A stretch of 64,000 nucleotides of DNA, from the NCBI RefSeq assembly GCF_014280075.1, contig NZ_CP047950.1:2170001-2234000 (forward strand), in the 5' to 3' direction. Below are positions 13,320 through 16,609 of this stretch, piece after piece. This stretch comes from Synechococcus sp. A15-62. Its GTDB lineage: Bacteria; Cyanobacteriota; Cyanobacteriia; PCC-6307; Cyanobiaceae. The notes under the pieces are model-generated. The model ran no database searches and was not told the DNA's origin. It saw only the letters and a program-made list of their open reading frames with translations. The position numbers and the translations under genes are program-made. The first letter of the stretch is position 1, and each line of letters starts with the position of its first letter.

Positions 13320-14228
13320 ATGGGTTGGTCCGCGGCTGACATCCCAAACCAGCAGGGGCGCATTGCCCTGATCACTGGAGCCAACAGCGGTCTGGGTCTG
13401 GAGACCGCACGGGCCTTAAAACGCTGCGGGGCAACCGTGGTGTTGGCGTGCCGCAGCCCCCGCAAAGCCGAGCTGGCCAAGCAGGAGTTGCTGCAGGAGC
13501 GCGACGGTGGAGCGGTGGATCTGGTGGACCTAGATCTGGCGGACCTGACCAGCGTGGAAGAGGCAGCGGCCACCGTTGGCGAACGCTACGGCTGCCTTGA
13601 TCTGCTGATCAACAACGCTGGCGTGATGGCACCGCCGCGGCGCACCACCGCCCAGGGACATGAACTGCAGTTCGGTGTGAATCACCTGGGGCACATGGCC
13701 CTAACCCAGGCCCTCCTGCCGCTGATGCAAAACCGGCCCGATCCCCGCGTGGTGACGGTGACCTCAGGGGCGCAGTACTTCGGCAAGATCCGCTGGGACG
13801 ACCCAAGTTGGAGCAAGAGCTACGACCGCTATGGGGCCTACGGCCAAAGCAAACTCGCCAACGTGATGTTTGCCCTTGAGCTGGATGCACGCCTACGCAA
13901 GCAGGGCAGCCCCATCCGCTCCCTGGCCGCCCATCCCGGCATCGCGCGCACGGAACTGCAACCCACCGCGATCGCCAGCGTCGGCAACCGCTTCGAGGCC
14001 TTGGCCTACCGGCTGATGGATCCCCTGTTCCAAAGCGCCGGCATGGGTGCCCTGCCGCAACTGCATGCCGCCACAGCGGCGACGGCGCAGGGTGGCGAGC
14101 ACTACGGCCCTGAGCAGTTCGGCGGCTTGCGAGGTGCACCGGCGCTCTGCCGTGTTGCACCAGCAGCAAGCCAACCCGCCGAACGGCAACGGCTCTGGAG
14201 CTTGAGCGAGCAGCTGATCGGTGGCTGA
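13320..14228 (+). CDS. short-chain dehydrogenase/reductase (retinol-dehydrogenase-like)
   Basis: An NAD(P)-dependent oxidoreductase of 302 residues with a Rossmann fold. The cofactor motif is TGANSGLG (about residues 20-27), followed by VVLACRSPRK, which favours NADP. NNAGVMAPP follows (about 98-106), and the catalytic Tyr and Lys are in YGAYGQSKLANV. The extended C-terminal part resembles retinol dehydrogenase/WWOX-like and protochlorophyllide-reductase-related SDRs, but the substrate cannot be fixed. Its stop overlaps the GTG start of the next gene by eight bases. Confidence 0.93.
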   Translation: MGWSAADIPNQQGRIALITGANSGLGLETARALKRCGATVVLACRSPRKAELAKQELLQERDGGAVDLVDLDLADLTSVEEAAATVGERYGCLDLLINNAGVMAPPRRTTAQGHELQFGVNHLGHMALTQALLPLMQNRPDPRVVTVTSGAQYFGKIRWDDPSWSKSYDRYGAYGQSKLANVMFALELDARLRKQGSPIRSLAAHPGIARTELQPTAIASVGNRFEALAYRLMDPLFQSAGMGALPQLHAATAATAQGGEHYGPEQFGGLRGAPALCRVAPAASQPAERQRLWSLSEQLIGG

Positions 14229-16194
14229 ATCCAGCGCTGGCTTGCAGCGGCTGGCCCCCTTCGTGATGGGCCGGGCCCGACGCGGCGTTGTGGGATCCAG
14301 TCGCTACGCCCAACGGCTGCGAACTGCGGTGCTGGAGGCCGCCCGAGACCCGCAGCGCCAACCGGTGCTGATCAGCGGCGAACCCGGCCTGGAAAAAGAC
14401 AACCTCGCCGCCCTGGTGCACTACGGATCAGCGGACCGGCGTCGTCTGCTTGTGCGACTGGACGCCAGTGATCTGCAGGGCAGCAGCCTCAACCTGCTGA
14501 ATGAGCTTGGATCCAACACGCTGCTGGTGAGCGGCATGGACCGCGTTGACGACGCGGTCCAACAGCGCTTGATCGCGATGGCCCATGGCCAAGCACCGGA
14601 GTTCAAAGGACGCGTGCTGTTCACCAGCGAAGCCACCATCCCGGCCCTCGACGGCCTGGTGCAATCCATCCGCGTCCCTCCCTTACGGGTGCGCCGAACC
14701 GACCTAGGGGACTGGCTGCGCTACCAGCTGAGGTTGCAGAGCCCTGGCCTCGGCTGGAGCCAACCACCCGCCCTGTCGGAGAGCGTGGTGCGACGGCTCC
14801 AGAACCACGATTTCGCCAACAACCTGCGCGAACTCGAAGCAATGGTGGATCGCGCCCTGCGGCAGGCCCGTCAGCAAAGCCATGGCGAGCTGCCACCACT
14901 GCTGCCTGAAGAGGTCTTCTGGACCGAAGAAAAAACACGGCGGGCCCGTTTTGACATCTGGCGCTGGAAACCGCAGCTGCGCAACTGGATGCGCGCACCG
15001 GCGCTCTGGAACACGCTGCTGTTCGGCCTGGTGAGCTGGATGTTCGTGGTCGTGAACGTGGTGCTCTGGCTTGGCCCGCAGGACCGCGCAGCCAATCCGA
15101 TGCTGAATCTGTTCTGGGCCTGGTGGTGGCCGTTGATCCTGCTGAGCTATCCGCTGGTGGGTCGCCTCTGGTGCGCCATCTGCCCCTTCATGATCTGGGG
15201 ACAGATCGCCCAGAAGCTGACCCCGTGGCGCAAGAAAAGCTGGCCCCATGGGGACATGGACCGCTGGGGAGCGCCTGCCCTCGCCGCCGGTTTTGCCTCG
15301 ATTCTGCTGTGGGAGGAGGTCTGGAACCTCGAGAACACCGCTTGGCTGAGCAGCTGCCTGCTGCTGCTGATCACGGCAGGGGCCGTGATCGGTTCAACGG
15401 TGTTTGAAAAACGCTTCTGGTGCCGTTATCTCTGTCCCGTCGGGGGCATGAACGGACTGTTCGCCAAACTCTCGATCCTTGAACTCCGCGCAGAAGCCGG
15501 CACCTGCAGCGGCAGCTGCAGCAGCTACGCCTGCTTCAAGGGCGGACCCGCCGATGAGGAAGGGCTGGCCAGCGAAGGCTGTCCACTGGGCACCCACCCT
15601 GCCCATCTGAGCGACAACCGCAACTGCGTGCTCTGCATGACCTGCACCCAGGCCTGTCCCAACCGCTCCGTGCAGTTGCGACTGCGGCCGCCGGCCGCTG
15701 ATCTGCAACGCACCATGCAGGCCCCGAATGGAGAGCGTGGATTGATCCTGGTGCTGGCTGGGGGCATTTGCCTGCACCACTGGCAACGCCTGCTGGGCTG
15801 GCTGCCCCTGGCACCGTCGTCATTGCATGAAGGCCCCCTGCTGGCCCGGCTCAGCTTTGCGGTGCTCGCTCTTGCCTTACCAGCTGCGATTGGTTTGTGG
15901 CTCAACCGCCGTTGGCTCTACGCCGGATTGCCGCTGCTCTGGGCCCTGCTCTTGGCGCGCCATCTACCCATCGGCATGGCCGAGGCGGGCACCGTCTTGC
16001 CACATGGCTGGCCGCAATGGTCAGCCGACCCCCATGTGATCGGCTTCTGCCAAACCTTGGTGGTGGGGATCGGATGGATTGGTGCAGCAATCTTGAGTCG
16101 CCGCTTGCTGGATCTCGACCGCAGGGCCTGGGTTATGGGCAGCATGGTGCTGCTCCTGGTCAGCTTCAGCGGCCGCTGGTTGGTCGCCCTTTAA
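14221..16194 (+). CDS. fusion: degenerate sigma-54-activator-like AAA domain + NapH/NosR-like membrane polyferredoxin
   Basis: Protein of 657 residues starting at GTG. Residues about 20-235 resemble the AAA+ domain of sigma-54 activators: GEPGLEKD (53-60) in the Walker A place, RVPPLRVRRTDLGDW (151-165) and FANNLRELEAMVDRAL (198-213). The Walker A glycine before the lysine is Glu and no GAFTGA loop is visible, so classical activity is unlikely. Residues about 260-420 carry membrane helices and two NosR/NapH-type Cys motifs, WCAICPFMIWG (318-328) and WCRYLCPVGGMNG (400-412). A 4Fe-4S ligand set follows at C469, C472, C475 and C479. Four or so more helices end the protein. An electron-transfer or redox-sensing role is inferred. 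The Fur-family gene is four bases downstream. Confidence 0.87.
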   Translation: MAESSAGLQRLAPFVMGRARRGVVGSSRYAQRLRTAVLEAARDPQRQPVLISGEPGLEKDNLAALVHYGSADRRRLLVRLDASDLQGSSLNLLNELGSNTLLVSGMDRVDDAVQQRLIAMAHGQAPEFKGRVLFTSEATIPALDGLVQSIRVPPLRVRRTDLGDWLRYQLRLQSPGLGWSQPPALSESVVRRLQNHDFANNLRELEAMVDRALRQARQQSHGELPPLLPEEVFWTEEKTRRARFDIWRWKPQLRNWMRAPALWNTLLFGLVSWMFVVVNVVLWLGPQDRAANPMLNLFWAWWWPLILLSYPLVGRLWCAICPFMIWGQIAQKLTPWRKKSWPHGDMDRWGAPALAAGFASILLWEEVWNLENTAWLSSCLLLLITAGAVIGSTVFEKRFWCRYLCPVGGMNGLFAKLSILELRAEAGTCSGSCSSYACFKGGPADEEGLASEGCPLGTHPAHLSDNRNCVLCMTCTQACPNRSVQLRLRPPAADLQRTMQAPNGERGLILVLAGGICLHHWQRLLGWLPLAPSSLHEGPLLARLSFAVLALALPAAIGLWLNRRWLYAGLPLLWALLLARHLPIGMAEAGTVLPHGWPQWSADPHVIGFCQTLVVGIGWIGAAILSRRLLDLDRRAWVMGSMVLLLVSFSGRWLVAL

Positions 16195-16198
16195 AACC

Positions 16199-16609
16199 AT
16201 GGCCACTCGCCGCCCTTCCACCCAGATCAATGCCCGCCAGAAGGTATTGCTGGCGAACCTGCAGGCCTGTGGTGATGAGATGAGCGGTCAGCAGCTCCAC
16301 CGCAGCCTGGAACCCGACCAAGCCATGGGCCTGGCCACGGTGTATCGCAATCTGCGCCAGCTGCAGCAACGGGGCCTGGTGCGCTGCCGCCACCTGCCCA
16401 ATGGGGAAGCGCTTTATGCGCCGCTGGAGCGGGATCGCCACCACCTCACCTGCGTCGATTGCGGCAAGACCCAGGCGCTCGACCACTGCCCGATTCACGA
16501 CCTGGAGGTGCCCGAAGAAGGCCGCAAAGGCTTCGATCTCCTGTTCCACACGCTTGAATTCTTTGGTCTCTGCAGCGACTGCCGCGAGCGGCAGCAAAGC
16601 CCCTCATGA
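16199..16609 (+). CDS. Fur-family metalloregulator
   Basis: DNA-binding repressor of 136 residues. The winged helix contains the family recognition segment GLATVYRNLRQLQQRGLV (about residues 44-61). The structural zinc site is two Cys pairs, CVDC (85-88) and CSDC (125-128), and HHLTC (81-85) and HTLEFFGLC carry further metal ligands. Fur, Zur and PerR cannot be separated on this basis; the CxxC pairs and HHLTC fit Fur or Zur. It lies four bases after the polyferredoxin fusion and overlaps the next gene by four bases, suggesting one transcript. Confidence 0.9.
   Translation: MATRRPSTQINARQKVLLANLQACGDEMSGQQLHRSLEPDQAMGLATVYRNLRQLQQRGLVRCRHLPNGEALYAPLERDRHHLTCVDCGKTQALDHCPIHDLEVPEEGRKGFDLLFHTLEFFGLCSDCRERQQSPS

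What the first reader, a model, noticed from the sequence alone, without database searches (positions are those of the whole stretch)
14221..16194. Fusion of a degenerate sigma-54-activator-like AAA domain to a membrane polyferredoxin
The first third looks like a sigma-54 activator AAA domain but has GEPGLEKD in place of a working Walker A and lacks GAFTGA. Cyanobacteria have no sigma-54, so a classical role is impossible. The remainder is a NapH/NosR-like membrane electron-transfer module with a CxxCxxCxxxC cluster. The stop lies four bases before a Fur-family regulator. A redox- or iron-sensing membrane protein is possible.
Basis: partly seen in the sequence, partly recalled or inferred. Interest (0 to 1): 0.68.

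Follow-up and report, generated by a model that had tools for sequence, protein, structure and literature searches.

The report
Cyanobacterial FesM-like membrane iron-sulfur protein
This gene encodes a short form of a membrane iron-sulfur protein found widely in cyanobacteria (most likely FesM, reported to help recycle electrons around photosystem I), carrying a worn-down leftover of a bacterial gene-switch motor at its front end; it is a variant of something known rather than a new sensor.

Summary
Window 14221-16194 (+) is a 657-aa ORF: residues 18-240 model as a sigma-54-activator AAA domain (VIA Z 19.1), followed by a NapH-like membrane iron-sulfur module and five further membrane helices. 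The fusion is conserved (match in 265 of 388 sampled class genomes). In 105 aligned homologues the P-loop Lys and 12 cysteines are invariant; the Walker B catalytic Glu and GAFTGA occur in none. Non-picocyanobacterial homologues usually carry an extra N-terminal CRP-type domain (36 of 39 in one alignment) that this orthologue and the other picocyanobacterial ones collected lack. The architecture matches my recollection of FesM of Synechococcus PCC 7002 (PSI cyclic electron flow). The FesM paper was not held, but in two genomes of that genus this is the only Fer4_5 protein. The "Fur" neighbour is Zur (74% identical to WH8102 Zur, 7NE9), a zinc sensor, directly adjacent only in close marine relatives, so the iron-sensor idea loses its support. 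Best reading: a CNB-less FesM, a membrane electron carrier (probably to quinone) with a non-hydrolysing AAA regulatory or assembly domain. A patchy paralogue group keeps a GKT P-loop.

The parts
14221..16194 (+). FesM-like protein, 657 aa: pseudo-ATPase AAA domain + NapH-like membrane iron-sulfur module + C-terminal 5-helix membrane domain
14272..14940 (+). AAA domain of sigma-54-activator type (residues 18-240)
   Evidence: VIA Z 19.1 to DmpR 6iy8_C, 211 aligned, 2.6 A; hhalign to PspF 99.4%, E 1.3e-21
14377..14403 (+). altered Walker A, GEPGLEKDN (residues 53-61)
   Evidence: GEPGLEKDN in 83 of 105, GEPGLGKDN in 17 of 105; K59 in 105 of 105
14518..14535 (+). altered Walker B (residues 100-105, TLLVSG); no catalytic Glu
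   Evidence: Glu at 105 in 0 of 105
14998..15402 (+). membrane helices 1-4 (residues 260-394) with CxxCP (C318, C321), predicted on the cytosolic side
   Evidence: Fer4_5; Cys invariant in 105 of 105
15421..15435 (+). CxxxCP motif C401-C405
   Evidence: invariant 105 of 105
15505..15657 (+). ferredoxin-like dicluster region: C429, C433, C438, C454 and C469, C472, C475, C479
   Evidence: these 8 Cys invariant in 105 of 105
15706..16191 (+). C-terminal membrane domain, five predicted helices (residues 496-657), no known domain found
13320..14228 (+). upstream short-chain dehydrogenase (PRK06197 type), overlaps the start by 8 bases; local neighbour only
16199..16609 (+). downstream Fur-family gene = Zur, zinc sensor; local neighbour only
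   Evidence: 7ne9 E 7.6e-66, 95 of 128 identical; 7NE9 is WH8102 Zur

Best explanation
[quoted passage not shown] Its N-terminal AAA domain descends from a sigma-54 activator but lacks the residues for normal ATP hydrolysis and for engaging sigma-54; it most likely serves as a regulatory or oligomerising cap (nucleotide-binding or purely structural) on the electron carrier. Shown here by sequence and model: domain make-up, predicted topology, invariance of 12 Cys, loss of the catalytic residues, conservation and purifying selection. Inferred: cluster types, direction of electron flow, quinone as acceptor, role of the AAA domain. Recalled or second-hand: the FesM phenotype and the equation of this family with FesM.
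For: AAA fold with altered Walker A and lost Walker B Glu and GAFTGA. NapH-like module. 12 invariant Cys in 105 homologues, predicted cytosolic in an N-in, 9-helix topology of the window protein with positive-inside bias. In the phylum sample 61 of the 76 matches are in-class and the other 15 are all partial; three of these 15 were read in full (L163, L164, L165) and carry the parts as separate genes. dN/dS against seven relatives 0.03-0.08 in the Fe-S region and 0.14-0.24 in AAA. In two genomes of the Picosynechococcus genus (assigned by matching plasmid pAQ7 of PCC 7002) the only Fer4_5 protein is this family's 840-aa member with cNMP_binding, sigma-54 AAA and Fer4_5 domains. PMC9003380 passages state that FesM acts in PSI cyclic electron transfer and that its loss in PCC 7002 prevents mixotrophic growth with glycerol.
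Against: The FesM paper (PMC1176428) was not held, so that FesM is this family rests on recall plus the single-candidate argument; sequence identity to FesM itself was not tested. The window form lacks the CNB domain, so function may have shifted. No direct evidence for clusters, quinone site or PSI. The Fe-S stretch is modelled poorly (pLDDT under 50 in 426-443 and 445-471), and the fold search did not test the membrane part. No match was found in 89 of 151 sampled family genomes (49 of the 95 that are at least 90% complete and at most 5% contaminated), so it is dispensable in many picocyanobacteria.
Confidence: 0.7

Rival explanations
1. A membrane redox or metal sensor that signals to transcription: the Fe-S module senses redox or iron and the AAA domain relays it, perhaps to a Fur-family regulator nearby.
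For: The N-terminal half of the family is built of transcription-factor parts (CNB, sigma-54-activator AAA). In the window it sits four bases before a Fur-family gene. In 11 further picocyanobacterial loci another Fur-family relative (26-33% identical) lies about 1.1-5.4 kb upstream on the opposite strand.
Against: The window neighbour is Zur, a zinc sensor, directly adjacent only in close marine relatives. No neighbour cluster was shared by more than 8 of 40 distant loci. No sigma-54 DNA-binding domain found in the genome, no GAFTGA, no DNA-binding domain found by Pfam.
Confidence: 0.12
2. A NapH/CcoG-like reductase working with a periplasmic or luminal partner (metal or cytochrome maturation) rather than cyclic electron flow.
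For: Membrane core related to NapH; five extra helices of unknown role.
Against: Scores far below the NapH cut-off (32.8 of 213 bits); no partner gene recurred next to distant homologues in more than 8 of 40 loci; second-hand mutant evidence for FesM, if the identity holds, points to PSI cyclic flow. CcoG itself was not compared.
Confidence: 0.13
3. A decaying relic: the CNB domain has gone and the AAA domain and then the protein are being lost in picocyanobacteria.
For: CNB absent from the FesM-type ORF in 104 of 104 picocyanobacterial loci; match in 62 of 151 family genomes; split ORF in G221/L023.
Against: dN/dS well below 1 in every region; all 12 Cys kept.
Confidence: 0.05

Closest known systems
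FesM of Synechococcus sp. PCC 7002 (Xu, Liu, Zhao 2005, Plant Physiol 138:1586; only its title seen, in reference lists)
   Same: Membrane iron-sulfur protein by title; two genomes of the PCC 7002 genus have one Fer4_5 protein each and it is this family's CNB-AAA-NapH member; that of G164 is 41% identical to the window protein over 674 columns
   Different: The window protein lacks the N-terminal CNB domain; FesM itself was not compared because its paper and genome record were not available by name
NapH (TIGR02163; E. coli NapH)
   Same: Membrane core with paired CxxC(x)CP-type motifs and a ferredoxin-like Cys set; hhalign 95.2%, E 2.6e-8
   Different: Adds an AAA domain and five C-terminal helices; first cluster site is Cx3Cx4C...CP rather than CxxCxxCxxxCP; below the NapH cut-off
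Bacterial enhancer-binding proteins (PspF, FleQ, NtrC1, DmpR)
   Same: AAA fold and lid; invariant P-loop Lys; N201, E204, L205 of the stretch I take for sensor II (label recalled) invariant
   Different: No GAFTGA, no Walker B Glu, altered P-loop, no DNA-binding domain found, followed by membrane helices, no sigma-54 DNA-binding domain found in the genome
slr0593 of Synechocystis, annotated 'cAMP binding membrane protein' (name in PMC3516471; link to this family is recalled)
   Same: Annotation fits the CNB-bearing form
   Different: In 34 of 37 CNB domains of the family the residue aligned with the CRP phosphate-binding Arg is not Arg, so cAMP binding is doubtful; not compared by sequence

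Membership tests
Sigma-54 activator (bEBP) | AAA fold of sigma-54-activator type | tested here: met
Sigma-54 activator (bEBP) | GAFTGA loop | tested here: not met
   0 of 105 homologues
Sigma-54 activator (bEBP) | Walker B DE with catalytic Glu | tested here: not met
   Glu at position 105 in 0 of 105
Sigma-54 activator (bEBP) | Walker A with GxGK | tested here: not met
   window GEPGLEKD; the second Gly is present in 19 of 105 homologues
Sigma-54 activator (bEBP) | Sigma-54 present in the genome | tested here: not met
   PF04552 not found; the same search rings in 4 of 14 control genomes. Other sigma-54 domains were not searched
NapH (TIGR02163) | Score over the curated cut-off | tested here: not met
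   32.8 of 213 bits
NapH (TIGR02163) | Membrane core with two CxxC(x)CP motifs and ferredoxin-like Cys set | tested here: met
FesM | Membrane protein with conserved cluster Cys | tested here: met
   12 invariant Cys, 9 predicted helices; clusters themselves not testable here
FesM | Sequence match to FesM of PCC 7002 | tested here: inconclusive
   The only Fer4_5 protein in two genomes of that genus is the family member, 41% identical for G164; FesM record itself not held
FesM | N-terminal cNMP-binding-type domain (recalled) | tested here: not met
   absent in the window protein and in 104 of 104 picocyanobacterial loci
FesM | Needed for PSI cyclic electron flow | not testable with these tools
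   second-hand statement in PMC9003380
Zur (downstream neighbour) | Close relative of WH8102 Zur | tested here: met
   7ne9 E 7.6e-66, 95 of 128 identical

The most novel reading that the evidence does not exclude
A whole transcription factor (CRP-type sensor plus sigma-54-activator AAA ring) was recruited in early cyanobacteria as a built-in, non-hydrolysing nucleotide-sensing gate on a membrane electron carrier, so that adenylate state sets cyclic electron flow directly at the protein level; two descendant branches then tuned it, one losing the CRP domain (picocyanobacterial orthologues) and one keeping a GKT P-loop (the paralogue group).
Probability: 0.25. Interest if true: 0.7.

Novelty: new variant of a known kind. 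Interest (0 to 1): 0.4.

Why it matters
If the identity holds, the fusion is the common cyanobacterial FesM, and the family gives a concrete case of a transcription-factor ATPase turned into a probable regulatory cap of photosynthetic electron transfer. It also warns that domain-based names for this family (sigma-54 interacting regulator, recalled; cAMP binding membrane protein) may mislead, because key motifs for both activities are missing. Whether the AAA cap reads adenylates is directly testable.

Tried and rejected
Iron sensing via the Fur neighbour: rejected; it is Zur, and direct adjacency is local. Against this, 11 other picocyanobacterial loci have a different Fur-family relative 1.1-5.4 kb upstream on the opposite strand; I did not follow that up.

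Loss of the CNB domain driven by loss of adenylate cyclase: not supported. The own genome has no PF00211 match, but the domain is also absent in picocyanobacterial orthologues whose genomes have cyclases (e.g. G119, G358, G373) and in two non-picocyanobacterial members whose genomes have cyclases (L143 from G065, L144 from G323). In one search the profile marked L144 as a hit, but only 30 residues precede its AAA domain and Pfam finds no cNMP domain in it.

Conserved operon partner: in the distant set no neighbour cluster reached more than 8 of 40 loci. In the picocyanobacterial set several clusters recurred (up to 42 loci), mixed with spurious antisense ORFs; in one locus examined (L080) the neighbours are a glutathione S-transferase, a CDP-alcohol phosphatidyltransferase, a sugar epimerase, HisA and an Lhr-type helicase, none an evident redox partner. 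The other loci were not examined this way.

C-terminal five-helix domain: no Pfam match in the window protein (one of 51 members of A2 matched MARVEL at 0.00081) and no convincing PDB match by sequence; the fold search was filled by the AAA domain, so its fold is untested.

Literature for FesM: only citing papers were found; PMC12265555 was a false hit (FeSMo). Two searches for this domain combination listed no paper on it (listings only).

Full report
What is there. Window 14221-16194 (+) is one open frame of 657 aa starting with GTG. It overlaps the preceding short-chain dehydrogenase gene by 8 bases and is followed after 4 bases by a Fur-family gene. The own genome is a single contig of 2,294,140 bases, 99.98% complete, with one match to this protein.

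N-terminal domain. Pfam finds Sigma54_activ_2 (1.3e-5) and a sub-threshold AAA lid. Profile comparison of 105 homologues (A1) with E. coli PspF gives 99.4% probability, E 1.3e-21. The AlphaFold2 model (mean pLDDT 83.2) matches sigma-54 activators over residues 18-240: VIA Z 19.1, 2.6 A, 211 aligned residues to DmpR 6iy8_C, with FleQ and NtrX rows tied within 1; Foldseek best E 2.5e-7 to 7ejw_D, a FleN-FleQ AAA complex. The catalytic parts are not: GEPGLEKDN stands in 83 of 105 homologues and GEPGLGKDN in 17 of 105, with K59 in 105 of 105; no homologue has Glu at the catalytic Walker B position (0 of 105); GAFTGA occurs in 0 of 105; a segment that in PspF precedes the lid, where I recall the arginine fingers to be, is shortened. 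PF04552 is not found in the genome, and PF25601 finds this gene alone there, just under its cut-off.

Membrane and iron-sulfur part. In the model residues 260-394 form four membrane helices, followed by a ferredoxin-like region (398-495) and five more helices (503-656); a plain hydropathy scan of the window protein found eight peaks rather than nine. Loop charges fit an N-in topology in which all 12 cysteines face the cytosol. These 12 are invariant in 105 of 105 homologues: C318, C321, C401, C405, C429, C433, C438, C454, C469, C472, C475, C479. E. coli NapH aligns over 305-488 with 95.2% probability, E 2.6e-8, but the NapH family score is 32.8 bits against a cut-off of 213. Profiles of the membrane part and of the C-terminal part found no convincing solved relative by sequence. 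The model is poor in 426-443 and 445-471.

Distribution. 265 of 388 sampled genomes of the class have a match, 62 of 151 of the family, and 76 of 244 of the phylum sample. In the last, 15 matches lie outside the class and all are partial (at most 238 of 698 positions); the number of out-of-class genomes searched is not shown. I read three of the 15: L163 and L164 are separate NapH-like polyferredoxins, L165 is a canonical-looking tandem activator with GAYTGA. The full fusion was thus seen only in the class, which I take to be the photosynthetic cyanobacteria. How A1 was made: of 150 loci collected (the window's own gene is L001; L025, L026, L027 and L030 repeat L111-L114), 133 passed a coverage and duplicate filter; with the window, 107 of 134 rows remained after a 93% identity filter, and 2 rows with unknown residues were dropped, leaving 105.

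Two forms. Outside the picocyanobacteria the protein is usually about 840 aa, with an N-terminal domain that Pfam calls cNMP_binding in 36 of the 39 non-picocyanobacterial members of A2 (36 of 51 in all; 12 of the 51 are the window and picocyanobacterial rows, of which I had trimmed 11 to the AAA start). L143 and L144 have none. A profile of that domain, searched against untrimmed ORFs, hits the FesM-type ORF in none of 104 picocyanobacterial loci, set apart by locus number and including the window's own; four of these are cut at the 5' end. It marks 45 of 46 others, among them L144, which has only the linker. The residue aligned with the CRP phosphate-binding Arg is Arg in 3 of 37, though 25 of 37 have a Glu one column from the CRP Glu, and the alignment to CRP is not strong (hhalign 58%, E 9.6e-5). 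So cAMP binding is doubtful, not excluded, even where the domain is present. Presence of adenylate cyclase does not explain the loss.

Neighbours. The dehydrogenase directly upstream was seen in 12 and the Fur-family gene downstream in 13 picocyanobacterial loci, both counts including the window's own copy, and one Fur about 3.9 kb away; the others encode proteins 72-100% identical to the window's. Many loci had only about 1.5 kb of flank. A different Fur-family relative (26-33% identical) lies 1.1-5.4 kb upstream, opposite strand, in 11 loci. Among 40 distant loci no neighbour cluster reached more than 8. The window's Fur-family gene is 95 of 128 identical to chain 7ne9, which the Nat Chem Biol paper deposits as Zur of Synechococcus WH8102 (PMC9337993, passages read). 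Zinc, not iron, is its metal there.

Selection. Against seven close relatives dN/dS (NG86, some dS above 1) was 0.14-0.24 for AAA, 0.09-0.16 for the first membrane part, 0.03-0.08 for the Fe-S part and 0.09-0.17 for the C-terminus. The AAA domain is retained, if somewhat relaxed.

A second branch. Seven loci (L155-L160, L162) carry a divergent paralogue, 34-36% identical to the window protein, forming a clade with 100/100 support in a tree of 30 rows. All seven keep the 12-Cys motifs. Three have a strict GxxGxGKT P-loop; in the other four the translations read PGSGKT, PGGGKT or PGTGKT with another residue at the first glycine. None has the Walker B Glu. Of five scanned, four have a cNMP_binding domain (L155, L156, L157, L159) and L162 has none. 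L155 and L156 come from genomes of the window's own family (G588, G556), so some picocyanobacteria still own a CNB-bearing paralogue.

Identity and function. From memory, this architecture is FesM of Synechococcus PCC 7002. The paper is not held. PMC9003380 (passages read) says FesM takes part in PSI cyclic electron transfer and that its loss prevents mixotrophic growth on glycerol. In both, the only Fer4_5 protein found is the family's 840-aa member with cNMP_binding, sigma-54 AAA and Fer4_5 domains; that of G164 is 41% identical to the window protein. This makes FesM the natural name but is not proof. PMC3516471 (passage read) lists slr0593, 'cAMP binding membrane protein', with negative expression values in an iron-deprivation table; I recall but did not test that it is the Synechocystis member.

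Mechanism. Electrons most likely enter from ferredoxin or NAD(P)H-linked donors on the cytosolic side, pass the [4Fe-4S] sites and the CxxCP/CxxxCP pair, and reach plastoquinone in the membrane. The AAA domain most likely binds nucleotide without normal hydrolysis, or is structural, and regulates or assembles the carrier. These steps are inference.

Verdict. It is a shortened variant of a probably known, widespread protein, with an under-appreciated pseudo-ATPase domain.

Noticed in passing
L155-L160, L162: Divergent paralogue group with a GKT P-loop, lacking the Walker B Glu, 12-Cys motifs kept; four of five scanned keep a cNMP_binding domain.
   Followed up: partly
L140:5643-9002: A family member with two AAA domains in tandem; the first has a more canonical P-loop (GEAGVGK) and a Walker B Asp.
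   Followed up: no
L005 against window 14221-16194: AAA region differs strongly (dN 0.29) while the C-terminal region is nearly identical (dN 0.02), as if a recombination joined two alleles.
   Followed up: no
L023 (G221): The gene is split over two overlapping ORFs (466 and 228 aa), possibly a frameshift or pseudogene.
   Followed up: no
window 16199-16609: Fur-family gene is the close relative of WH8102 Zur.
   Followed up: yes
L017, L044, L045, L053, L056, L070, L080, L082, L100, L104, L109: A different Fur-family relative (26-33% identical to the window's) lies 1.1-5.4 kb upstream of the FesM-type gene on the opposite strand.
   Followed up: no
CNB domains in A2 loci: In 34 of 37 the residue aligned with the CRP phosphate-binding Arg is not Arg, casting doubt on 'cAMP binding' annotations.
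   Followed up: partly
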